Shown here piece after piece: positions 1-43,931 of a stretch of 48,762 nt of DNA. The stretch is from Dysgonamonadaceae bacterium (lineage in GTDB: Bacteria; Bacteroidota; Bacteroidia; Bacteroidales; Dysgonomonadaceae), in contig JARKPE010000139.1 of assembly GCA_029975415.1 (NCBI GenBank), positions 1-48,762 of the forward strand. Reading direction: 5' to 3'. Position 1 is the first letter of the stretch. The number at the start of each line of letters is the position of its first letter. Under the pieces are notes generated by a model. The model saw only the letters and a list, made by a program, of their open reading frames with translations. It was not told the DNA's origin and made no database searches. Both the position numbers and the translations under genes were made by a program.

Positions 1-152
1 CAGATTTCTGTTCGTCAAAACGTCAGCTTTGCTGATGGCTTCTTTCAGATTTGCGGTCGCCCGCAACACCCTTGCCATTCGCTAATGTTTCTTGTCAACT
101 CGGCACATACAGGAACTCGCATCCTGCAAGCTTAATACCATACCTGACATAC
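1..152 (-). ncRNA. Group II intron, 5' part (domain I), cut by the window edge
   Basis: Read on the minus strand, this stretch has the look of domain I of a bacterial group II intron: an AAACATTAGCGAATGG segment, then AAGGGTG, a hairpin TTGCGG-gcga-CCGCAA (51-66) with a GNRA tetraloop, AATCTGAAAGAAGC, a hairpin TCAGC-AAA-GCTGA (23-35) and GACGAACAGAAATC. Smaller stems are at 76-87 (CATT/AATG) and 110-126 (CAGGA/TCCTG). The rest, presumably with the reverse transcriptase/maturase, would lie left of base 1. The exact 5' end is uncertain; GTATG at 152 is a possibility but differs from the usual GUGYG. No coding sequence is seen here. The call rests on sequence resemblance to known introns plus the visible stems. 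Confidence 0.72.
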
Positions 153-2115: not shown

Positions 2116-3819
2116 ATGCAGATTCCACTGAACCGATTTGAGCAATATATCGACGAAACCATACTGAAACGTGGTTTGCAGTATTTCAAAAAAGGACATG
2201 TACATGAGCCTGAAGAGATAAGTCCCGGTGTGTACGAAGCTATTGTTGAAGGTACCGAAGATTATATCGTGCAACTTACTCTTAAAAACGGTATCATTAC
2301 GGAGCATGTTTGCGATTGTCCCTACGATTTCGGTCCTGTATGCAAGCATGTGGCCGCCGTAATTTTTTATCTGCAACAGGATGAGTTGGAATTGAACAAT
2401 AAAACGAAAAGAGCAAAAACAAACCAAACGTCTAAACCTGTAAAACGAAAGACGGTTGCCGAGCAAGTTGACGAGCTGCTCGAAAAAGCGACACACGACG
2501 AGCTAAAACAATTTGTGCGTGAGCAGGCATTACAAAACGCATCGTTCCGGAATTTGTTCTTGTCGTCGTTTGCCCAACACAATTCCAATGAATCGAAAGA
2601 ACTGTATGTAAAGCAGGTGAAAGCGATACTTAAAGCCGCCTCCGACAGAGATGGTTTTATCGACTGGTCAGCTTCGAGGCTTGTTGGCAAAGCAGTTGAC
2701 AACCTTTTGGAATCGGCTCGCAAACAAATTGATAACCGCAACTACAGAAGTGCTGTTTTTATTTGTACTGCCGTAATGGAACAAATGACCGAAGCCCTGC
2801 AATATGCCGATGACAGCAATGGTGAAATTGGCGGGAGAGTTGAAGTTGCATATGAAATACTCTATAACATAGCCTTGGAACAATCATCCGAAGAAATCAG
2901 AAAACTGATTATCGAATATTGTTTTACTTCTTTCGACAAACAAATTTATTCAGGTTGGGATTGGCATACCGATATTTTACGTCTTGCTGCTTTGCTTTTA
3001 AAAACAGAAGAAGAAACCGAGCGTATTTTTAAACAAATCGATAAAGCCCAAAGGTCTGATTATGAGATGGAAAGAATTCAAAACATCAAGTACGAGATCT
3101 TGTTAAAGACTAAAGGTGAAAATGCTGCAGAGAAATATCTTGAACAGAATATTACAAATTCAGAATTAAGGCGAGTAGCTATTCAAAAAGCGCTGGAAAA
3201 GAGAGATTTTGAGAAAGCTGCTTCATTAGCCGAAGACGGAGTGAGTTATGATTTGAAAGACAGACCCGGCTTGGCAAAAGAATGGTACGACTGGTTGCTA
3301 AAAATAGCACAAGCCCAAAACGATTCCGAAAAAATTATCGAATATGCACGCTTGCTGTTTATTGACAATTTCAGGAAAGAACAGGATTATTACACGATCA
3401 TGAAACAACAGGTAAAACCTGAAGAATGGAACGCATTTGTTGAAGCGATTATAAAGGACATTAAAACGAGTAAACGATGGTTTGATGATATTAGCTTAAT
3501 TGCAAGTATCTTCATAAAGGAAGAATGGTGGGACAGACTTTTGGAATTGGTTAAAAAGTCACCCAGTTTAAACACAATTGACCGTTACGAGATATATCTT
3601 TCTCAAAGTTATTCTAAGGAATTAATCGAATTATACGCAAACGGGATTCTGAATTACATGAAAAACAGCATGGGAAGAGACCATTACCAAAATGCGTGCA
3701 GATATATCCGAAAGATTATTAAAATGGGAGGAAGAGGCAAAGCAAACGAAATTATTTCCTACCTGAGAACCGAATATCCCAAAAGAAGAGCATTAATGGA
3801 AGAATTGAATAGGATATGA
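2116..3819 (+). CDS. SWIM zinc-finger domain protein
   Basis: A 567-residue cytosolic protein. Near the N-terminus C66-x-C68-x7-C76-x-H78 (CDCPYDFGPVCKH) is a SWIM zinc-binding motif, a module known for DNA or protein binding. Residues about 95-115 form a basic KRAKTNQ/KPVKRK linker. The remainder is charged, helix-rich and TPR-like in texture, with no catalytic motif recognised. It sits 149 bases upstream of sbcD on the same strand, separated by two hairpins, so co-transcription is uncertain. In other bacteria SWIM proteins are often near SNF2 helicases; none is seen here. The biochemical function is unknown. The start follows a TACCTTTG -7 box. Confidence 0.85.
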   Translation: MQIPLNRFEQYIDETILKRGLQYFKKGHVHEPEEISPGVYEAIVEGTEDYIVQLTLKNGIITEHVCDCPYDFGPVCKHVAAVIFYLQQDELELNNKTKRAKTNQTSKPVKRKTVAEQVDELLEKATHDELKQFVREQALQNASFRNLFLSSFAQHNSNESKELYVKQVKAILKAASDRDGFIDWSASRLVGKAVDNLLESARKQIDNRNYRSAVFICTAVMEQMTEALQYADDSNGEIGGRVEVAYEILYNIALEQSSEEIRKLIIEYCFTSFDKQIYSGWDWHTDILRLAALLLKTEEETERIFKQIDKAQRSDYEMERIQNIKYEILLKTKGENAAEKYLEQNITNSELRRVAIQKALEKRDFEKAASLAEDGVSYDLKDRPGLAKEWYDWLLKIAQAQNDSEKIIEYARLLFIDNFRKEQDYYTIMKQQVKPEEWNAFVEAIIKDIKTSKRWFDDISLIASIFIKEEWWDRLLELVKKSPSLNTIDRYEIYLSQSYSKELIELYANGILNYMKNSMGRDHYQNACRYIRKIIKMGGRGKANEIISYLRTEYPKRRALMEELNRI

Positions 3820-3890
3820 ATCATGTGAATTTATGTATATGTATTTGTTGTTGTATTTACATTTTCACATTTTCCACGAACATCCCATAG

Positions 3891-3950
3891 CCCACGAATT
3901 TATTCGTGGGTAATCGGAGAATTCGAAAATATGTAACCGTTTCAACGGTT
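3891..3950. repeat. Two REP-like intergenic hairpins before sbcD
   Basis: CCCACGAAT-TT-ATTCGTGGG (3891-3910) is a near-perfect palindrome, and AACCGTT-TC-AACGGTT (3935-3950) is a second one 24 bases on. Similar short palindromes recur between genes in Bacteroidetes and are often linked to REP-associated transposases. They end 18 bases before the sbcD start and have no T run, so they are not obvious terminators. Confidence 0.6.
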
Positions 3951-3968
3951 TAAAATATTTGAAACGCA

Positions 3969-22748: not shown

Positions 22749-23873
22749 ATGAATTTATTTGAGGTTTATAGTTTGTGGAATATTGAGCCGGTAAAGGCCG
22801 AAGGATGCAAACTTTGGGATAAAAACGGCACTGAATATCTTGATTTTTATGGCGGACATGCTGTAATTTCAATCGGACATTCGCATCCCGAATATGTTAA
22901 AGCGATCAAGAAACAGGTCGATAATTTGGGATTTTACTCCAATTCCGTACAAAATTCGCTTCAAAAACAAGTTGCCGAAAAGTTAGGCGAACTCAGCGGA
23001 TATTCCGATTATTCGCTCTTTTTATGCAATTCGGGTGCCGAAGCCAATGAAAATGCCTTGAAGCTGGCATCGTTTCATACAGGTCGCAAACGTGTGATTG
23101 CGATGAAGAAAGCTTTTCACGGACGCACATCAGGAGCTGTCGCAGTTACCGATGATCCATCCATTCAATCGCCTTTTAATACAGGACATGAGGTTACTTT
23201 CGTTGACCTGAACGATACAGAAGGAGTAGAAAATGAGTTGGCAAAGGGTGATGTGGCTGCCGTCATTATTGAAGGCATTCAGGGGGTGGCCGGAATTTTC
23301 GTGCCTGAAACCGAATTCCTGCAGCGTGTGCAAGCTGCTTGTGAAAAATATGGATCGGTGCTTATCCTCGATGAAATTCAATCGGGATATGGACGTACGG
23401 GAAAGTTCTTTTCTCATCAGTTTTCCGGCATCAGACCCGATCTTATTACCACCGCGAAGGGGATGGGGAACGGTTTCCCGATAGGAGGCGTATTGATTTC
23501 GTCGAAATTTGAAGCCAAAAAAGGAATGTTGGGGACAACTTTCGGCGGAAATCATCTGGCTTGTTCGGCCGCAATTGCCGTGCTCGATATTATGAATAAT
23601 GAGTCGCTGATGAATAATGCGGAGGAAATGGGCCGTTATCTGCAAAGTGAACTTTCCAAATGTGCCGGAATCAAAGAAATTCGTGGCTATGGATTGATGA
23701 TCGGTGTGGAAATGAAACCTGAATATGCCGGCGTTCGTGATAAATTGTTATTCGAAAGCCATATTTTTACCGGCAGTTCGAAAAATAATGTGATTCGACT
23801 ACTTCCACCGCTCACCGTTTCGAAAAAAGAAATTGATATTTTAATTCACGAGTTCAAAAAACATACGTCATGA
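22749..23873 (+). CDS. argD: N-acylornithine aminotransferase
   Basis: A PLP-dependent class III aminotransferase of 374 residues that converts N-acylglutamate semialdehyde to N-acylornithine with glutamate as donor. Motifs: FYGGHAVISIGHSHP, SGAEANENALKLA for the cofactor phosphate, AFHGRTSGA, LILDEIQSGYGRTG with the PLP-binding Asp, and TTAKGMGNGFPIGG with the Schiff-base Lys. It overlaps argF' by four bases (ATGA). Confidence 0.95.
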   Translation: MNLFEVYSLWNIEPVKAEGCKLWDKNGTEYLDFYGGHAVISIGHSHPEYVKAIKKQVDNLGFYSNSVQNSLQKQVAEKLGELSGYSDYSLFLCNSGAEANENALKLASFHTGRKRVIAMKKAFHGRTSGAVAVTDDPSIQSPFNTGHEVTFVDLNDTEGVENELAKGDVAAVIIEGIQGVAGIFVPETEFLQRVQAACEKYGSVLILDEIQSGYGRTGKFFSHQFSGIRPDLITTAKGMGNGFPIGGVLISSKFEAKKGMLGTTFGGNHLACSAAIAVLDIMNNESLMNNAEEMGRYLQSELSKCAGIKEIRGYGLMIGVEMKPEYAGVRDKLLFESHIFTGSSKNNVIRLLPPLTVSKKEIDILIHEFKKHTS

Positions 23874-24826
23874 GGCATTTTACCAGTGTTAAAGACATAA
23901 GCGACCTGAATTTGGCGCTCGAAAAAGCAAAATATGTCAAGGAAAATCCGTTTGCCGATCAGGCTTTAGGCAAAAACAAAACCTTATTGATGATTTTCTT
24001 CAATTCGAGTCTTCGAACGCGTTTGAGTACCCAAAAAGCGGGATTGAATCTGGGCATGAACGTAATTGTGCTCGATATTAATCAGGGAGCATGGAAGCTT
24101 GAAACAGAGCGTGGCGTGATTATGGATGGCGACAAAACCGAACACATCCTTGAAGCCATTCCCGTGATGGGCTGTTACTGTGATATTATAGGCGTTCGCT
24201 CTTTTGCTCAGTTCCAAAGCAAAGCCGATGATTACAACGAGGTTATTCTCAATCAGTTTATCCAATATTCTGGTCGACCCGTTTTCAGCATGGAGGCGGC
24301 TACACGACATCCTTTGCAAAGCTTTGCCGATTTGATTACCATCGAAGAGTATAAAAAAACGCCTCGACCAAAAGTGGTACTTACTTGGGCTCCTCATCCC
24401 AAACCGCTCCCTCAAGCTGTGGCAAACTCATTTTGCGAATGGATGAATGCTACCGATTACGAATTCGTTATCACTCATCCCGAAGGATACGAGCTGGATG
24501 AAAAATTTGTGGGTAATGCCAAAGTGGAATACGATCGCGAGAAAGCATACAAAGATGCCGATTTCATTTATGCCAAAAACTGGTCGGCTTATCGTGATCC
24601 GAACTATGGCAAGGTGATCAATAAGGATATGTCGTGGACAGTGGATGCGAAAAAAATGGCGTTGACCAACAATGCTTATTTCATGCACTGCCTGCCAGTT
24701 AGGCGCAACATGATAGTTACTGACGAGGTGATCGAAAGTCCGCAATCTATCGTGATTCCCGAAGCAGCAAATCGTGTGGTATCGGCTCAGGTGATATTAA
24801 AAGAAATTCTTCTGGGATTGCAATAA
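23870..24826 (+). CDS. argF': N-acylornithine carbamoyltransferase (ArgF')
   Basis: Transfers carbamoyl phosphate to N-acetyl- or N-succinylornithine, giving N-acylcitrulline. The 318 residues follow the Bacteroides fragilis type closely: carbamoyl-phosphate loop SSLRTR (46-51), INQGAWKLETERGVIMDGD, CHQ-like MGCYCDIIGVRSF, ATRHPLQSF, and HCLPVRRN near the C-terminus. Residue 90, in DGDKT90EH, is Thr; published work places Pro there in the succinyl-specific B. fragilis enzyme and Glu in acetyl-specific Xanthomonas enzymes (numbering 92). The acyl group used is therefore open. The stop is 16 bases before the vestigial argB start. Confidence 0.94.
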   Translation: MRHFTSVKDISDLNLALEKAKYVKENPFADQALGKNKTLLMIFFNSSLRTRLSTQKAGLNLGMNVIVLDINQGAWKLETERGVIMDGDKTEHILEAIPVMGCYCDIIGVRSFAQFQSKADDYNEVILNQFIQYSGRPVFSMEAATRHPLQSFADLITIEEYKKTPRPKVVLTWAPHPKPLPQAVANSFCEWMNATDYEFVITHPEGYELDEKFVGNAKVEYDREKAYKDADFIYAKNWSAYRDPNYGKVINKDMSWTVDAKKMALTNNAYFMHCLPVRRNMIVTDEVIESPQSIVIPEAANRVVSAQVILKEILLGLQ

Positions 24827-24842
24827 CACAAAAAATTCCGAA

Positions 24843-24902
24843 ATGACCGAAAATAGAGCTCTCTCGATAGTTAACCAACATTGCAGGTGTATGGTTGAGT
24901 AG
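24843..24902 (+). pseudogene. Vestigial 5' end of argB, cut after about ten codons
   Basis: ATG 24843 opens a frame MTENRALSIVN that parallels the intact ArgB N-terminus MSENNLSIVK (27753). The 11 bases TCGATAGTTAA (24864-24874) are identical to 27771-27781. It sits 16 bases after argF', where argB would be expected, and runs into foreign sequence at the TTAA of an insertion sequence, reaching a stop at 24900-24902. It cannot be functional; the complete argB lies 2.9 kb downstream. Confidence 0.7.
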
Positions 24903-25141
24903 TAGTTATGATGAAAGCCCAGGTTGTTATAACTACCCGAGCCACACAGAATGATGGCGCACGTGTAGAAATATGTCAGTGCACAGAGCCGGAAGAGAAA
25001 CTCAATCAAATCCTGTTCGCTCTGGATATAAAAACTCCCTTAATAAAAAGAAAAAAATTTTGAGTGTCATCCAAATGCACCTCCTCAAAAGGACATCCAC
25101 TCCGTTACAGGTACTTAGCTCGATAATACCTACAATGTGGG
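24875..25141 (+). mobile_element. Decayed insertion sequence with TTAA duplication
   Basis: Left end CCAACATTGCAGGT (24875-24888) and right end ACCTACAATGTGGG (25128-25141) are inverted repeats with 12 of 14 positions matching, and both are flanked by TTAA (24871-24874 and 25142-25145), a likely target duplication. The CC ends and 4-base duplication recall the IS1380 family, common in Bacteroides, but this is tentative. At 267 bases the element is internally deleted and keeps only the 3' end of its transposase gene. Confidence 0.65.
24908..25063 (+). pseudogene. Transposase C-terminal fragment
   Basis: A 51-codon frame inside the decayed insertion sequence reads ...ARVEICQCTEPEEKLN... followed by a short hydrophobic helix and KTPLIKRKKF at the end. 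This CxC-TEP-helix-basic tail pattern is like the C-terminus of DDE transposases of Bacteroidetes elements. The two starting ATGs are probably accidental; the 5' part of the gene is missing. Confidence 0.5.
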
Positions 25142-25210
25142 TTAACATTGAATTTCTGCAATAGTAAAATATTTTTTTTATTTTTGTGCTGGATATTTTT
25201 TTAATTTTAT

Positions 25211-25218
25211 TACTTTTG
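25211..25218 (+). promoter_or_regulatory. Candidate -7 box for the radical SAM operon
   Basis: TACTTTTG matches TAnnTTTG 24 bases before the radical SAM start codon. A TTTG at 25183-25186 lies 24 bases upstream, longer than the usual 19-21 spacing. It is outside the insertion sequence, so the island carries its own promoter. Confidence 0.45.
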
Positions 25219-25242
25219 CCATAAAACATCTTTGAAGTTTTT

Positions 25243-26220
25243 ATGCTATTAATTCAGCCTAAAATATTGACTTTAATTACAACCTATAAATGCACTGCTG
25301 CATGTGAAAATTGCTGTTTTAATTGCTCTCCAAGAATCTCTAAAATGATGTCGTTATCAGAGATGATTAAATATATTACAGTCTCTGTAGAAAATTTCCC
25401 ATCAATTGACGTAGTTGTATTTACAGGAGGAGAATGTACGCTTTTAAAAGACTCGTTGTTAGATGCTATTAAGTTTTGCACAACATTAAACTTAAAAACA
25501 AGAATCGTAACTAATGGTTATTGGGCTAAGAATAAAGGAGAAACAATAAAAAAACTTAATTCATTTGTTCAAGCAGGATTAAGCGAAATAAATGTTAGTA
25601 CAGGGAAAGATCACATGAAATATATACCTATATCTAATGTAATGAATATTATGGAAGAATCTTGTAAAAATGATAGCATTGACGGAATTATTATCGCTAT
25701 AGAGGAAAGAGATGATTACGAAAAAGAACATCCTTATTTGTTGCTAGAAGAAAAGAGAAAAATTATTAATAACAATCAAAAAGTATTATTAGTTAAAAGT
25801 CCTTGGATTAACTTTAGGAATAGACGGTCTTATTTTAATCATGAAAAAACGATGAACCGATCTGGATGCAAGAACTTATTTACAGGAATACAAATAAATC
25901 CAAATGGACAATTATTGTCTTGTTGTGGATTAGCATGCGAATACACTCCTTTTTTAAAATTAGGAAAGGTTTCAAATGAAAATATTACCGAATTATATGG
26001 ACTTCAATTTTATGATTTATTAAAATTATGGCTCTATACTGAGGGCCCAGTACAAATATTAAATAAAATAAATAATGATAATATTCAAGATTGCAGACAT
26101 GATTGTGATCATTGCTTAGAGCTTTTGACAAATAAGGACAATATTCAAAAACTTATTAATACTACTCATCGTATGGCCAATGAAATTATCTTAAAATATA
26201 GCATTAAAACTAAAATTTAA
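25243..26220 (+). CDS. Radical SAM protein with C-terminal SPASM-like cysteine cluster
   Basis: 325 residues. C17-x3-C21-x2-C24 (CTAACENC) binds the SAM [4Fe-4S] cluster, with extra Cys at 25 and 28, and TGGE at 61-64 contacts SAM. A second group (C209, then C227, C228, C232 after NPNG, and C284-x3-C288-x2-C291) is arranged like a SPASM/twitch auxiliary cluster region, typical of enzymes that modify ribosomally made peptides or proteins. It lacks a RiPP-recognition N-terminal domain. Six bases separate it from the lipoprotein gene. The sequence is very AT-rich (11 G/C in 25741-25800, against 24 in 27961-28020 of argB), consistent with transfer. The substrate is unknown. Confidence 0.9.
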   Translation: MLLIQPKILTLITTYKCTAACENCCFNCSPRISKMMSLSEMIKYITVSVENFPSIDVVVFTGGECTLLKDSLLDAIKFCTTLNLKTRIVTNGYWAKNKGETIKKLNSFVQAGLSEINVSTGKDHMKYIPISNVMNIMEESCKNDSIDGIIIAIEERDDYEKEHPYLLLEEKRKIINNNQKVLLVKSPWINFRNRRSYFNHEKTMNRSGCKNLFTGIQINPNGQLLSCCGLACEYTPFLKLGKVSNENITELYGLQFYDLLKLWLYTEGPVQILNKINNDNIQDCRHDCDHCLELLTNKDNIQKLINTTHRMANEIILKYSIKTKI

Positions 26221-26226
26221 ACGATT

Positions 26227-27126
26227 ATGAAAAATAAAATTAAACAAAATTATAAAAAAGTTGTTTTGTCTCTTGTAACGACTTCTATTGGTGTTACTTC
26301 TTGCAATTTAAATGGTGATTTAGATGATAATCTTAAAGAGGAAGAAGAAAGAACAATAGGTTTTACGATTAATAATTTTGCAAAAGATGAGCCTATTGGC
26401 ACAAATTTATTACCTATAAGTTTATATGTCGGGAAAGAATATAATACAAAAATCAAATTCATTGATTCCTTTGTAAATAATATATTATCAAATCACTCTG
26501 AAGCTCTAAAATTTAAAGAAAATCCATGCGAAGTGTTATCTAAATACAATATAGAAAATATGCCTATTGATAAAAACTCTCCAGAAATACAAATTCTTTT
26601 TGCTCTTGCAGATTCAGAAATATTAAAGGCAATTGAAGACAATGATGTAAAAGCTTATTTTGAACTCCTTAAAAAGAAAAATTTATTTCAAACAGATAAG
26701 TTTAAAAAGATGGTCTCTATCTACGAAGCAAACGAAAAGATGGGGGCTAATTCTAAAGGTGCGAGTTCTGTTAATCAAGAAGAAGTTATATCTCCCGTAG
26801 CAATATGTTTTTTAGGGGTTGCTATTTATGTTGCATTGGCTACAGTTGCGGAAACTTATGTAATGGCACATCATAAATTTGCCATGTGGGGAGGCACAAT
26901 AGAAGAAGTCAGGGCTGTTGCCAATTCAGAACTTATAGATGAAAATGTAATGAAATTATGGAGTTTAAAAGGGAACATACCTAACACGTATGATTTGAAT
27001 GATCCACAACAAAATTCAATAATTGAAACTTCATTCCTCATTTCTGAAAGTGCAAAATTGACAGAAAGTGAGAGAGAAATAGTAACGAAGATATCTTTAG
27101 GTACGATCGAAAAATATAAAAATTAA
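26227..27126 (+). CDS. Predicted lipoprotein of the radical SAM island
   Basis: 299 residues. A basic N-terminus and short hydrophobic stretch end in a lipobox-like VTSC (Cys about residue 26), followed by an acidic segment with EEEE. The middle (about 75-150) includes FKENPCEVLSKYNI and ILFALADSEILKAIEDND; the F-x-x-N-P-x-x-V-L-x-K-Y-x-I pattern resembles the leader region of nitrile-hydratase-type (NHLP) peptide precursors, an analogy made by eye. A later hydrophobic helix (AICFLGVAIYVALATVAE) could anchor it further. It may be the substrate of the adjacent radical SAM enzyme, but nothing proves this. No known family is recognised. Confidence 0.75.
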   Translation: MKNKIKQNYKKVVLSLVTTSIGVTSCNLNGDLDDNLKEEEERTIGFTINNFAKDEPIGTNLLPISLYVGKEYNTKIKFIDSFVNNILSNHSEALKFKENPCEVLSKYNIENMPIDKNSPEIQILFALADSEILKAIEDNDVKAYFELLKKKNLFQTDKFKKMVSIYEANEKMGANSKGASSVNQEEVISPVAICFLGVAIYVALATVAETYVMAHHKFAMWGGTIEEVRAVANSELIDENVMKLWSLKGNIPNTYDLNDPQQNSIIETSFLISESAKLTESEREIVTKISLGTIEKYKN

Positions 27127-27130
27127 AAAA

Positions 27131-27592
27131 ATGAAATACTATTTTTTACCTGACAAATCTGTAATAATTATAAGTATAATTATAATTATTGCCATAGGTT
27201 TTATGGTGCAATATATTATACATGTTAATAAATGGTATATTGCGCTTCCTACAGTGCTGGCTGTAGTTCTTTTCATCTTCTTTTTTCTTAAAACGCCTTA
27301 TTGCACAGAAGTTACAACAGATTCAATAAAAATAAAAAAGATATTTGGACAGGAAATATTCAAAAAAGAAGATATTCAAAAAATTGAAATAATTAAAAAA
27401 GAAGATTTAGAAGGTGGCTACCGGAAAATGGGAAACGGAGGATTCTTTGGATATAGCGGTTTTTTTTATGCCCCCAAGATAGGTAATTTTCAAATGATTA
27501 CAATCAATCAATCTGAATTAGCTAAGATAACTATGAATACAGGAAAAATCTACATCATTAATTATCCTCACAAACTTTTAGATGAGCCTTAA
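27131..27592 (+). CDS. Membrane protein with bacterial PH-like domain
   Basis: 153 residues, four bases after the lipoprotein gene. Two N-terminal transmembrane helices (VIIISIIIIIAIGFMVQYII and a second around residues 38-56) are followed by a soluble part beginning CTEVTTDSIKIKKIFGQEIF, whose strand pattern (TDSIKIKK...FKKEDIQKIEI) is that of bacterial pleckstrin-homology domains. A Gly-rich GNGGFFGYSGFF loop lies in the middle. Proteins of this type typically act as membrane adaptors. It is the last gene of the AT-rich island; role unknown. Confidence 0.75.
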   Translation: MKYYFLPDKSVIIISIIIIIAIGFMVQYIIHVNKWYIALPTVLAVVLFIFFFLKTPYCTEVTTDSIKIKKIFGQEIFKKEDIQKIEIIKKEDLEGGYRKMGNGGFFGYSGFFYAPKIGNFQMITINQSELAKITMNTGKIYIINYPHKLLDEP

Positions 27593-27620
27593 TTATCAAA
27601 AATCAAAAACAAATACATAA

Positions 27621-27713
27621 AATCCAAAGTATCAACTATTTGCATCAACTTCCGGTATTGGTGGTATTGGTGCACTCCGACCCCAGCCACCTTATAGGAG
27701 GAATTTTATCTAA
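27621..27713 (+). other. Start-less open frame with Gly-Ile-Gly tail before argB
   Basis: The 160-base gap between the island and argB contains an open frame without ATG, GTG or TTG, ending TSGIGGIGALRPQPP-YRRNFI at a TAA (27711-27713). It includes a direct repeat of GGTATTGGT (27654-27662 and 27663-27671) and differs from the AT-rich island in base composition. It could be the 3' remnant of another gene carried in with the present argB copy, or chance. A GGAGG at 27698-27702 is not followed by a start codon. Confidence 0.3.
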
Positions 27714-27752
27714 ATCGTCTGACCTTTCAAGTGAAGGTTTATTTAAAGCGTT

Positions 27753-28535
27753 ATGTCAGAAAACAACCTTTCGATAGTTAAAATCGGTGGAAATATTGTT
27801 GACCATCCTGAGGTACTGGAGTCATTTCTTTCCGATTTTCATCGGTTGGAAGGTCGAAAGCTACTCGTTCATGGTGGTGGCGTTATGGCCTCGAAACTTT
27901 CGGCGCAACTTGGCATCGAAACGAAAATGATAGAAGGTCGTCGCGTAACTGACGAGGAAACTTTGAAATTGGTTACGATGGTGTACGCTGGCTGGATCAA
28001 TAAACAGATAGTAGCTTTGTTGCAAAAAATCGGTTGTAATGCCATTGGACTTTCGGGTGCCGATGCCAATTGCATTCCTTCGAAGCGTCGAAATCCTGAA
28101 CCGATAGATTATGGTTTTGTTGGCGATCCGATAACCGAAAAAATGAACGGAAAATTTATCTCGATGTTGATCGAAAATGAAGCAGTGCCGGTTTTTTGTG
28201 CGATTACACATGACGAAAACGGTTCGTTGCTCAACACTAATGCCGACACCATTGCCTATTCGCTTGCAGCTGCTCTCTCGAAATATTATCGAACGACGTT
28301 GTTTTATTGCTTCGAAAAGGAAGGAGTCTTGCGCGACATTAACGACGAAGATAGTTTGATTTCATCTATTACTTTCGGCGAATATATCGACCTAAAATCG
28401 CAAGGAGTTATTGCCGGGGGGATGATTCCCAAAATCGATAATTCGTTTAAGGCAATCCAAAATGGTGTGTCGGAAGTGGTAATTTTGCACGCCAAAAATT
28501 TATTGAACGGAAAAGGAACAAAACTGATTTTATAA
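27753..28535 (+). CDS. argB: N-acylglutamate kinase
   Basis: Phosphorylates N-acylglutamate (acetyl or succinyl) in arginine synthesis. 260 residues of the amino-acid kinase family: KIGGNIVD at the N-terminus, VHGGGVMAS for the ATP phosphates, GLSGADANC, NTNADTIAYSLAAALS and GGMIPKIDNS near the C-terminus. It is complete despite the disrupted copy of its start 2.9 kb upstream, so its promoter must lie in the island or the 160-base gap. Two bases separate it from argE. Confidence 0.94.
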   Translation: MSENNLSIVKIGGNIVDHPEVLESFLSDFHRLEGRKLLVHGGGVMASKLSAQLGIETKMIEGRRVTDEETLKLVTMVYAGWINKQIVALLQKIGCNAIGLSGADANCIPSKRRNPEPIDYGFVGDPITEKMNGKFISMLIENEAVPVFCAITHDENGSLLNTNADTIAYSLAAALSKYYRTTLFYCFEKEGVLRDINDEDSLISSITFGEYIDLKSQGVIAGGMIPKIDNSFKAIQNGVSEVVILHAKNLLNGKGTKLIL

Positions 28536-30958: not shown

Positions 30959-31165
30959 GATTATTATTTTTAAGGTTGTGAATGGTTATGTGAAAGTTTT
31001 TCGAAGACGAGTAAATTTAGTGAAAATGATTATATTGTTAAGTCATTTAATTGTATTTCATTTCAGGTAAATCATTACCCAATTTTGTAAATTTATTTTT
31101 AAGAACGATTATCGATAAATAATTAACTAAATAAATAGCTTATATTCAACTTTTTGGATAGTTAT

Positions 31166-31783
31166 TTATTTTATTATACCTTTTCTTTCTACATTGTCCT
31201 GAATTCTGGTAAAATGAACTGATAGCTTTAAAAGAAAAAGGTAAGCACCATAATCACTTAATGAAAAGATTCGATCGTTCGGAACTTTTTCTCTATCGAT
31301 TAGATTGTTAGGCATGTTATTTACTCTATCAAGAAAAACAATTGATTCATCCAATTTTCCTTGAAATCTTGGAAGGTAAAAAATTTGAGTAATTTCTTGT
31401 TTTTTGATAGCCTTAATATGATCATCAATTTGTTGTTCGGTTTTTTTGGAATTTGTAAGGAGAGCTTCTTTGTATTTTTCCAAATTGAAAATAGGAGCAT
31501 ATACAATTTGAGAGGTGAAATTTCTATGATTTTGTAAATCAATATCGCAAGTATTAGATAAAATAATTCCTGGTGCAGCTTTTATGTCAGATTGAGGAAG
31601 ATTTATAACCAATAAATTGTTCAAGCCATCGCCCTGATAAATTATTTCACTATCAATAAGATAAGTTGTGTATAATCTTTCATCAATATTTTCAGGGAAG
31701 TCTTTAAGTCCATTAAATAATTCACGTTCAGAATCCGCTGACAAAAATTTAGGCAAATAGATTTTAATATCATCTATATTCAT
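31166..31783 (-). CDS. Unknown protein with SNTCDI motif, third gene of an AT-rich cassette
   Basis: 205 residues from the ATG at 31783, which overlaps the previous stop (ATGA); an upstream TTG at 31795 is less likely. No family is named with confidence. The most distinctive segment is GIILSNTCDID (Cys79), the only Cys in the protein; I loosely recall similar I-L-S-N/Q-T-C-D-I motifs in proteins of accessory cassettes. A Lys-rich helix (KKTEQQIDDHIKAIKKQ) and a hydrophobic-aromatic C-terminal half follow. No signal peptide or membrane helix is seen, so it is predicted cytosolic. Its role may depend on the two genes before it. Confidence 0.75.
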   Translation of the reverse strand: MNIDDIKIYLPKFLSADSERELFNGLKDFPENIDERLYTTYLIDSEIIYQGDGLNNLLVINLPQSDIKAAPGIILSNTCDIDLQNHRNFTSQIVYAPIFNLEKYKEALLTNSKKTEQQIDDHIKAIKKQEITQIFYLPRFQGKLDESIVFLDRVNNMPNNLIDREKVPNDRIFSLSDYGAYLFLLKLSVHFTRIQDNVERKGIIK

Positions 31784-32088
31784 ATCAATTCCCAAAAATT
31801 CTTATTGACTATATCTACAAATTCACTATCAATATCTTTAGTATTTTGAATTACTTTGTTAGAGAAGTCGATTATTATTTGCAGCTTTTCTATGCTTTCA
31901 TCTTGAAACTGATAGTCTGATTGACGTAATGCAATGTCTTTCCAATCTGCGATGTCATTTTGATGTTTAAAATCGTAATTCATTTTAGGAATAGATTTTT
32001 CAAATTCATAAGTTAAACTAATCACACTTGTACTAATAGTCGCAAGTAAAACAACACTAGTTAATGAATTAAGTGTATTTATTTCCAT
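31780..32088 (-). CDS. Small predicted membrane-anchored protein
   Basis: 102 residues. The N-terminus (TSVVLLATISTSVISLTYEF) is moderately hydrophobic and may be a single transmembrane helix, leaving an acidic helical tail (DESIEKLQIIIDFSNKVIQ) in the cytosol. It lies two bases after the TIGR04255 gene and overlaps the next gene by four bases, so all three are one transcription unit. No known family is recognised. Confidence 0.65.
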   Translation of the reverse strand: MEINTLNSLTSVVLLATISTSVISLTYEFEKSIPKMNYDFKHQNDIADWKDIALRQSDYQFQDESIEKLQIIIDFSNKVIQNTKDIDSEFVDIVNKNFWELI

Positions 32089-32090
32089 AA

Positions 32091-32795
32091 TTAATATTTT
32101 GGATGAAGAGTATTTAAAAATTCCGTTTTCAATAAACTAAAAAATAATTCCTTTTCTTTTAGATGGCCTGCCTCAATAACTTCGATTTTTCTAGAGAAAA
32201 AAGATTCCAAATTATTAGTAGTGAATACATCGATATCGATAATTGAACCAATCTTTCCATTAATAATTGCATTATTAGCTGTTTGTAAAGTACTTTTAAA
32301 TTCACCCTGTTCAATTTCTGTTCTTACAATTGTATTGTTATATTTAATTTCATCTTCTTCTAAGTATACTTTAAGATTAATTTTTTCAAAAATATTTGTT
32401 TCAAAGAAATTAATATATCTAATGCCAATTCTCTCAATCGTATTAATAATTTTAATATTTTCAACTTTTGAGAGTACATTTAAGATAATTTGTGAAAACA
32501 AGTCCCAGCCCTGATAAGTCGGAAAGGAACTAATTGTAATTACATCAGGTCCAATTTGGACGACAAATCGATCATTCGATATTTTATAGTAAGGTTTATA
32601 TTTAAAATTTGGATCATTTGCTCTAATTATATCTGGTAATTGCAGAATCGGCAAACTTTCAACGTTCGGAAAGTCATTTTGCAATACATTGTATGTTATA
32701 CCAAATACGGCATTAGCATTGATTACCGAAGTAAATCTTACTTCCAGTAATGCATCAACAATCGGGCACGGATCAATATTACTAGGTAAATTCAT
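32091..32795 (-). CDS. TIGR04255 family protein
   Basis: 234 residues that match my recollection of the sporadically distributed TIGR04255 family: the start PIVDALLEVRF, a central FVVQIGPDVITISSFPTYQGWD, and RIGIRYINFFE. The family has no established function. The sequence is AT-rich (16 G/C in 32281-32340). First gene of the minus-strand cassette, behind a TATATTTG promoter box and a roughly 115-base leader. Confidence 0.8.
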   Translation of the reverse strand: MNLPSNIDPCPIVDALLEVRFTSVINANAVFGITYNVLQNDFPNVESLPILQLPDIIRANDPNFKYKPYYKISNDRFVVQIGPDVITISSFPTYQGWDLFSQIILNVLSKVENIKIINTIERIGIRYINFFETNIFEKINLKVYLEEDEIKYNNTIVRTEIEQGEFKSTLQTANNAIINGKIGSIIDIDVFTTNNLESFFSRKIEVIEAGHLKEKELFFSLLKTEFLNTLHPKY

Positions 32796-33111
32796 TGATA
32801 ATTCTTTTATGGAATCATTATTAGGAGTAAATATCGCTGATAAATATGTAATAAGTTATTTTATTATCTTCTATCTGAATTATTTCATCATTTGTCACTA
32901 TGAGCTAACTTAGATGGCAAATATACGATTTTCTAATTATCTAATCAAGATATTTCTAATATTTTTTTGCTGTTCCCTTTTACAAATTAGACACTGGAGA
33001 TAAGTTGAAATCATTCAATTTTCTCGCAAAGAATAAAAAATCGGATTCCTTTTTCAAATGACTAAATCCAATTTTCTTTTCTATCTTTGCAGCGTAATCA
33101 AAAATCGAACA
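32796..33111. promoter_or_regulatory. Divergent region between the TIGR04255 cassette and pta
   Basis: 316 bases, AT-rich. On the minus strand CTTG (32946-32949) is 20 bases upstream of TATATTTG (32918-32925), a good match to a Bacteroidetes promoter for the cassette. On the plus strand TATCTTTG (33082-33089) is a -7 box for pta without a clear -33 partner. No further gene is seen. Confidence 0.55.
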
Positions 33112-43851: not shown

Positions 43852-43931
43852 AGAAAGACGATGTGGACAGATTTGAGCTGCTTGCAACCACAGAAAAAAA
43901 TGCTAAAACCATTCTCCGCAATGCTTTAGAC
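43852..43931 (+). ncRNA. Probable SAM-I (S-box) riboswitch, Bacteroidetes variant
   Basis: The metK leader carries the S-box hallmarks: GCAACC (43884-43889) followed by TGCTAAAA (43901-43908), a P2-like helix TGTGG/CCACA (43862-43866 with 43888-43892), a P4-like hairpin CATT-ctccgc-AATG (43910-43923), and a short closing pairing AAAG/CTTT (43854-43857 with 43924-43927). P3 seems reduced to an A-rich loop. SAM binding would lower metK expression. A further hairpin GCTT-agt-AAGC (43943-43953) lies between it and the start codon. Confidence 0.65.

What the first reader, a model, noticed from the sequence alone, without database searches (positions are those of the whole stretch)
24843..27781. 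Vestigial argB start and TTAA-flanked insertion sequence split the arginine operon
Seen: 16 bases after argF' a frame MTENRALSIVN mirrors the intact ArgB start MSENNLSIVK; 11 bases (TCGATAGTTAA) are identical at 24864 and 27771. The vestige stops at TTAA, where a 267-base decayed insertion sequence begins (14-base inverted repeats, 12 matching; TTAA on both sides; transposase tail). What follows the second TTAA is not argB but three foreign genes, and then a complete argB. Simple insertion cannot give this. Either a second recombination delivered cargo plus a new argB 5' end, or argB was replaced together with the island.
Basis: partly seen in the sequence, partly recalled or inferred. Interest (0 to 1): 0.7.

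Follow-up and report, generated by a model that had tools for sequence, protein, structure and literature searches.

The report
Toxin-like gene islet inside arginine operon
A small foreign islet, made of a decayed insertion sequence and three genes that look like a modified-peptide toxin set, sits inside the start of a host arginine gene, which stays readable only because a substitute start lies at the far end of the islet.

Summary
The one congener held, G001, has the empty site: argF', 16 bp, then argB. Relative to it the window carries a 2,903-bp insert (24875-27777) at TTAA in codons 10-11 of the old argB. Deleting it in silico restores an uninterrupted 261-codon argB. One net insertion is therefore enough, and "simple insertion cannot give this" is too strong. 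An 11-bp direct repeat (TCGATAGTTAA) borders the insert. Beyond it the new start MSENNL- resembles the old MTENRAL- only modestly, so where it came from stays open. The 267-bp element is an internally deleted IS1634-family copy; other copies in the same genome (one assembled to 2,172 bp) also sit at YTAA. argB itself is not foreign: it is sister to G001's in the argB, argF' and argE trees. The cargo is G+C-poor (28% against 44%), unmatched in G001, and encodes a YydG-like radical SAM enzyme, a 299-aa lipoprotein-like protein with a hydrophobic stretch, and a membrane PH-domain protein. Decayed or diverged sets occur in Phocaeicola coprocola and two further genomes. Most likely it is a RiPP-toxin/immunity islet; function was not tested.

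The parts
23870..24826 (+). argF' (N-acetylornithine carbamoyltransferase type), intact
   Evidence: NCBIfam NF003384, 301 bits against cut-off 288; 97% aa identity to G001
24843..24874 (+). vestigial native argB start, MTENRALSIV, cut at TTAA in codons 10-11
   Evidence: collinear with the intact argB start of G001; 2 of 20,000 shuffles; codon position
24864..24874 (+). left copy of the 11-bp direct repeat TCGATAGTTAA
24875..25141 (+). internally deleted, decayed IS1634-family element: left end, then the last 231 bp with the transposase tail, frameshifted against the other copies
   Evidence: inverted repeats 12 of 14; alignment to the 2,172-bp copy L053:1829-4000; IS1634 model 253 bits on that copy
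25142..25145 (.). TTAA on the right of the IS (target type YTAA)
   Evidence: the six other flanks of this IS seen in the genome are TTAA or CTAA
25211..25218 (+). TAnnTTTG box 24 bp before the radical SAM start codon; candidate promoter of the cassette (consensus recalled, not from a call)
   Evidence: a second match lies at 25179, and the motif occurs 31 times on the + strand of the window, so weak
25243..26220 (+). YydG-like radical SAM enzyme, 325 aa, with CxxxCxxC (CTAACENC, residues 17-24)
   Evidence: Pfam Radical_SAM 34.7 bits, cut-off 29.5; TIGR04078 YydG 87 bits, below its cut-off of 300; solved YydG chains 8ai1-8ai6, E about 6e-13; motif
26227..27126 (+). putative peptide precursor, 299 aa, lipobox-like VTSC at residues 23-26 and a hydrophobic stretch at about residues 187-209
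   Evidence: TIGR04032 SdpC-family E 0.011, 15.6 bits, far below cut-off 99.2; distant relatives in G105, G079 and a piece in P. coprocola L064; positions
27131..27592 (+). 153-aa protein with a hydrophobic N-terminal part and a bacterial PH domain (bPH_5); candidate immunity protein
   Evidence: Pfam bPH_5 33 bits, cut-off 22.5; hydrophobic part; relatives beside the same partners in L064 and G105
27593..27752 (+). spacer of unknown origin between the cassette and the new argB start
   Evidence: in 101 genomes searched, own included, only the window itself matched at length; the others are pieces of 24-40 bp
27753..28535 (+). complete argB, 260 aa; its first six codons (27753-27770) lie in the insert, the part after the repeat is native
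   Evidence: TIGR00761 190 bits; 91% aa identity to G001
27771..27781 (+). right copy of the 11-bp direct repeat TCGATAGTTAA
28538..29638 (+). argE-like deacylase, intact

Best explanation
A 2,903-bp foreign islet (deleted IS1634-family copy plus a three-gene cassette) lies at TTAA in codons 10-11 of the host's old argB. Shown: the empty site in the congener, the insert limits (which can slide within the 11-bp repeat), the direct repeats, an argB reading frame kept by a start codon in the right end of the insert, and native descent of the rest of argB at genus level. Inferred: the islet came in as DNA whose right end already bore an argB-like 5' end (for example IS, cassette and argB start from a related strain). 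It joined the host by homologous exchange within argB on the right and at TTAA or an IS copy on the left, and selection for arginine synthesis kept products with a working argB start. I give this route about 0.5, a single insertion with an 11-bp target repeat and a fortuitous start about 0.35, and duplication of the start by the IS about 0.15. Inferred function: the radical SAM enzyme modifies the hydrophobic core of the precursor, which is exported and cut to a membrane-active peptide, and the PH-domain membrane protein protects the producer.
For: Empty site in G001 with 16-bp spacing. Flanks joined in silico give a 261-aa ArgB without internal stop. G001 gave no match to the precursor, the radical SAM gene or the IS DNA. 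Cassette G+C is 28% against 44% for its neighbours. argB shows the same divergence and tree place as argF' and argE. Codon-aligned, new start and vestige differ at 6 of 29 sites, vestige and G001 at 8 of 32, new and G001 at 8 of 29; TCG-ATA is shared by both window copies and not by G001. The three partners recur in P. coprocola L064 (decayed) and G105 (enzyme gene in pieces), and two of them as fragments in G079. Radical SAM relatives lie near SdpI or DUF1648 proteins in 3 of 7 plasmid records opened (Thermus, Collinsella, Klebsiella) and in G606.
Against: No donor locus with the cassette next to another argB was found. Outside ATG and the 11-bp repeat the likeness of the new start to argB is marginal in nucleotides (2,206 of 20,000 shuffles; 91 of 1,842 ATG sites). 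No integrase or second IS end bounds the right side, and a terminal inverted repeat test failed (1,149 of 5,000 shuffles). On function: the precursor's SdpC match is far below cut-off, and none of the neighbouring candidate precursors tested (7 plasmid proteins; G105 and G606) matched SdpC at all. The P. coprocola protein and the G606 protein in the PH place did not match bPH_5 in Pfam. Four of the 7 plasmid records opened show no annotated SdpI or DUF1648 protein nearby. The precursor's predicted model was unusable (mean pLDDT 38). No transporter or protease gene lies in the cassette.
Confidence: 0.55

Rival explanations
1. One insertion event with an 11-bp target repeat: the IS (acting one-ended) or an unknown recombinase inserted the unit at TCGATAGTTAA, and the unit's right end happened to supply ATG and five codons in frame.
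For: Removing the insert leaves a clean empty site; a perfect 11-bp repeat borders it; likeness beyond the repeat is marginal in nucleotides. IS1549 and IS1634 of this IS family are reported to make direct repeats of 8-514 bp (PMC2266710, passages).
Against: The one copy of this IS whose two sides could be paired, by inference, shows a 4-bp repeat (CTAA); no right-hand IS end, and no terminal inverted repeat above shuffles; protein likeness MSENNL/MTENRAL is reached by only 2 of 1,842 ATG sites.
Confidence: 0.3
2. An IS1634-family insertion duplicated the argB start as a long direct repeat; the cassette entered later between the IS and the second start.
For: Long variable repeats are reported in this IS family (PMC2266710, passages); the two starts are about as alike as each is to G001.
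Against: It does not explain TTAA followed by non-argB sequence at the IS right end; the argF'-argB spacer is not repeated before the new start; the paired copy of this IS shows a 4-bp repeat.
Confidence: 0.1
3. Assembly artefact: reads of two strains joined at the IS or at the 11-bp repeat.
For: The genome is a 141-contig assembly and the other copies of this IS sit at or near contig ends.
Against: A separately named contig crosses both junctions with 100% identity, though perhaps from the same reads; 11 bp is short for a misjoin (inference); the window copy is only 83-85% like the other copies.
Confidence: 0.05

Closest known systems
IS1634 family insertion sequences
   Same: Transposase of the 2,172-bp copy matches the family model; inverted ends; A+T-rich target
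   Different: The window copy is a 267-bp internal-deletion remnant; the duplication is 4 bp (YTAA) in the paired copy, while 5-6 bp is reported for the family (PMC2266710, passage)
YydFGHIJ / EpeXEPAB epipeptide system of Bacillus subtilis
   Same: Radical SAM enzyme nearest to YydG by profile and by solved structures
   Different: YydG score far below the equivalog cut-off; precursor is 299 aa and lipoprotein-like, not a short peptide; no protease or ABC transporter genes in the cassette (the make-up of the Bacillus operon is recalled, with search-listing abstracts)
SDP cannibalism toxin (SdpC) with SdpI immunity
   Same: Weak match of residues 136-240 of the precursor to the SdpC family; some relatives of the radical SAM enzyme sit near SdpI or DUF1648 proteins
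   Different: Match far below cut-off; a PH-domain protein takes the place of SdpI; a radical SAM enzyme is added
SXT/R391 elements at the 5' end of prfC
   Same: Works like: DNA enters the 5' end of a conserved gene (PMC2791158, passage); that the gene then uses an altered start is recalled
   Different: No integrase, no conjugation genes, 2.9 kb only

Membership tests
IS1634 family (the element at 24875-25141) | transposase matches the family model | tested here: met
   668-aa transposase of the homologous copy: NF033559 253 bits, cut-off 100; the window copy keeps only its tail
IS1634 family (the element at 24875-25141) | terminal inverted repeats | tested here: met
   12 of 14 bases
IS1634 family (the element at 24875-25141) | A+T-rich target duplication of 5-6 bp (PMC2266710, passage) | tested here: inconclusive
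   A+T-rich, but 4 bp: CTAA in the C90/C64 copy, paired by inference; TTAA at the window
YydG epipeptide epimerases | TIGR04078 at or above its curated cut-off | tested here: not met
   87.1 bits against 300
YydG epipeptide epimerases | epimerisation of precursor residues | not testable with these tools
   needs expression and mass spectrometry
SdpC sporulation-delaying toxin family | TIGR04032 at or above its cut-off | tested here: not met
   15.6 bits against 99.2; no match in the relatives tested
RiPP cluster (general) | modifying-enzyme gene next to a candidate precursor gene, recurring together | tested here: met
   pair seen in the window, G105 (enzyme gene in pieces), G079 (fragments) and P. 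coprocola (decayed); similarity is distant
RiPP cluster (general) | precursor is modified by the enzyme | not testable with these tools
   needs an experiment
Integrative element with att site | integrase gene in the element | tested here: not met
   of the ORFs between the repeats, the three cassette proteins and the 63-aa ORF in the IS gave no integrase match
Viperin (pVip) antiviral enzymes | NF038283 at its cut-off | tested here: not met
   30.4 bits against 180; PADLOC pVip 32 bits; weaker than the YydG match

The most novel reading that the evidence does not exclude
The islet is a mobile, non-autonomous RiPP-toxin cassette that uses the argB start as its attachment site (11-bp core TCGATAGTTAA) and carries a replacement argB start, moved by a recombinase supplied in trans; its cargo is an undescribed Bacteroidota class in which a YydG-like enzyme modifies a lipoprotein-borne SDP-like peptide, with a PH-domain protein as immunity.
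Probability: 0.12. Interest if true: 0.65.

Novelty: new variant of a known kind. Interest (0 to 1): 0.4.

Why it matters
It gives a clear case, with its empty site, of a biosynthetic operon gene keeping its reading frame after an insertion into its own coding start, through a substitute start. The cargo points to a recurring partnership of a YydG-like radical SAM enzyme with large hydrophobic-core precursors and PH-domain or SdpI-type proteins, in Bacteroidota and on some plasmids of other phyla. That partnership is directly testable by expression.

Tried and rejected
Foreign argB: not supported by identity, four-fold sites or trees. Terminal inverted repeats of the insert without its IS: not above shuffles (1,149 of 5,000). 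Origin of the 160-bp spacer: only 24-40-bp matches; the 34-bp match in G034 led nowhere. Cassette on viral contigs: two scans, with the radical SAM and the PH-domain protein, no relative confirmed; the precursor was not scanned there. Precursor on plasmids: no match. Structure of the precursor: one job, mean pLDDT 38, not used. Hairpin or terminator at the right junction: RNA fold z -0.97, and the only terminator-like site in 24700-28000 is inside the PH-domain gene. tRNA genes as target: none in the window. Defence reading: only weak viperin hits. Papers, seen as search listings with the start of the abstract: SdpC with radical SAM and epimerase, 3; SdpI with radical SAM, 3; sporulation delaying protein with Bacteroidetes and radical SAM, 0; SdpC with homologs and Bacteroid, 2, unrelated by title; epipeptide terms, 28 of which 20 listed. 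None of these was opened.

Not examined: 12 of the 42 argB-bearing genomes gave no locus; 6 of 13 plasmid records were not opened. ISfinder was not available.
Full report
What was checked. argF' ends at 24826, a vestigial frame MTENRALSIV starts at 24843 and runs into TTAA at 24871-24874, in codons 10-11. A 267-bp element (24875-25141) with 12-of-14 inverted ends follows, then TTAA, three genes on the same strand, and a complete argB from 27753.

Empty site. The window lies in a 141-contig genome. The only other genome of the genus held, G001, has argF', 16 bp and argB directly joined. Its homology to the window ends at TTAA on the left and resumes at the repeat on the right. One search returned 30 loci with argB: 1 own, 22 with the same-family argB type, 7 more distant. 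argF' lies upstream on the same strand in 22 of 22 same-type loci: within 241 bp in 19 (measured to the place aligned with the window's argB residue 1) and with one gene between in 3. The 7 distant loci show no argF' in the roughly 1.5 kb held. The adjacency therefore looks ancestral, and the junction has taken other genes in three genomes.

Net insertion. Removing 24875-27777 and one TTAA yields an uninterrupted argB of 261 codons. The insert is bordered by TCGATAGTTAA on both sides, so its limits can slide within that repeat. The claim that a simple insertion cannot explain the locus fails in its strict form: one net insertion suffices if the right end of the insert brings a start codon. An in-frame stop lies just before the new ATG with two codons between, so the new start is the first one available.

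Is the second start an argB start? The vestige is clearly homologous to the G001 start (2 of 20,000 shuffles; 1 of 1,788 ATG sites). The new start shares the 11 bases exactly, including TCG-ATA codons that G001 lacks. Outside ATG and the repeat the nucleotide likeness is marginal: against the vestige 2,206 of 20,000 shuffles and 91 of 1,842 ATG sites; against G001 1,030 of 20,000 and 95 of 1,842. The protein likeness to the vestige is stronger (2 of 1,842). Codon-aligned differences are 6 of 29 (vestige-new), 8 of 32 (vestige-G001) and 8 of 29 (new-G001), the repeat included. A start from a related argB fits; so does a fortuitous end. I weigh them about 0.5 to 0.35, with 0.15 for duplication by the IS; these weights are judgement.

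argB history. Over seven arg genes, nucleotide identity to G001 is 86.7-91.6% and argB has 90.2%; identity at four-fold sites is 62-73% and argB has 69%. In maximum-likelihood trees of argF' (23 rows), argB (25 rows) and argE (21 rows), the window is sister to G001 with 99/96, 100/98 and 100/100 support. L015, L018 and L021 were left out there as second copies of the genomes in L077, L075 and L076, and rows covering under 80% of the query were dropped. argB as a gene is native at the level of the genus; a donor within the genus would not show.

The insertion sequence. Copies 83-85% like the window element sit at or near the ends of contigs C102, C90, C63 and C64, and left ends were found on C90, C139 and C47. 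The C90 copy is 2,172 bp with a 668-aa transposase of the IS1634 family; the others are assembled only in part. The eight flanks seen, the window's two included, are all YTAA: six TTAA and two CTAA. The CTAA pair is probably the two sides of one insertion in a receptor-like gene split between C90 and C64 (inference). The window copy lacks the middle of the element and is frameshifted. Because this IS seems to favour YTAA, TTAA on both sides does not by itself prove that both flanks belonged to one insertion. A review gives 5-6-bp A+T-rich duplications for the family and says that IS1549 and IS1634 make direct repeats of 8-514 bp (PMC2266710, passages seen).

The cargo. Cassette G+C is 28% against 44% for argB-argH. 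The first gene is a radical SAM protein, nearest to YydG (TIGR04078 87 bits, cut-off 300; solved YydG chains). The second is a 299-aa protein with a lipobox-like VTSC at residues 23-26 and a hydrophobic stretch at about 187-209, with a weak match to SdpC-type toxins (E 0.011). The third has a hydrophobic N-terminal part and a bPH_5 domain. In 101 family genomes, own included, the radical SAM protein was matched at E 1e-8 or better only in the own genome and, as a fragment, in G079. In 395 class genomes, own included, it was matched at 1e-10 or better only in the own genome and G606 (32% identity). In 101 relatives at the looser E 0.001, 10 had a match, own included, the others weak. The precursor had 2 further hits, both weak, among 395 phylum genomes, own included.

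Relatives of the set. Phocaeicola coprocola carries a decayed set of all three. G105 carries radical SAM pieces beside a 323-aa precursor and a bPH_5 protein of 55.9 bits. G079 carries fragments of the first two. Of 13 plasmid records with a radical SAM hit, 7 were opened: 3 (Thermus, Collinsella, Klebsiella) have an SdpI or DUF1648 protein and a methyltransferase near the enzyme gene, and 4 show no annotated SdpI or DUF1648 protein (the plasmid gene tables are incomplete). G606 has a DUF1648 protein as the second gene after the enzyme.

Results against the toxin reading. None of the 7 plasmid neighbours nor the G105 and G606 candidate precursors matched SdpC. The proteins in the PH place in P. 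coprocola and G606 did not match bPH_5 in Pfam, although the former is 49% identical to the window's over 110 residues. The cassette has no transporter or protease gene. The reading as a modified-peptide toxin with an immunity protein is an inference from anatomy and neighbours; nothing here shows activity.

Verdict. The event that made the second start is unresolved. The cargo is the more novel part, a variant of known radical-SAM peptide systems that meets neither the YydG nor the SdpC cut-off. The literature searches made listed no paper whose title or start of abstract describes this pairing in Bacteroidota (20 of 28 were listed). Of the literature, only passages of PMC2266710 and PMC2791158 were read.

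Noticed in passing
window 30959-33023: A second G+C-poor (27%) stretch of about 2 kb directly after argH without a counterpart at that place in G001: three minus-strand ORFs, one of the TIGR04255 family (130.7 bits, cut-off 30).
   Followed up: partly
window 43857-43916: SAM-II riboswitch, 58.4 bits.
   Followed up: no
window 1-66: Partial group II intron domain match on the minus strand at the contig edge.
   Followed up: no
window 2267-3968: About 1.7 kb with no counterpart at that place in G001.
   Followed up: no
L075 4062-5492 and L076 7395-8819; L077 3978-4943: In three other genomes of the family one extra gene sits between argF' and argB: similar 474-476-aa proteins with a signal-peptide-like start in two, a 321-aa protein that looks like an M28 peptidase (by eye, not scanned) in the third.
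   Followed up: partly
L074, L071, L072 (Klebsiella, Thermus, Collinsella plasmids): Proteins encoded just before the YydG-like enzyme carry Asn-rich repeats (such as ANANA or NVN), and a methyltransferase gene follows the enzyme directly or one gene later, recalling proteusins such as polytheonamide (resemblance recalled, not tested).
   Followed up: partly
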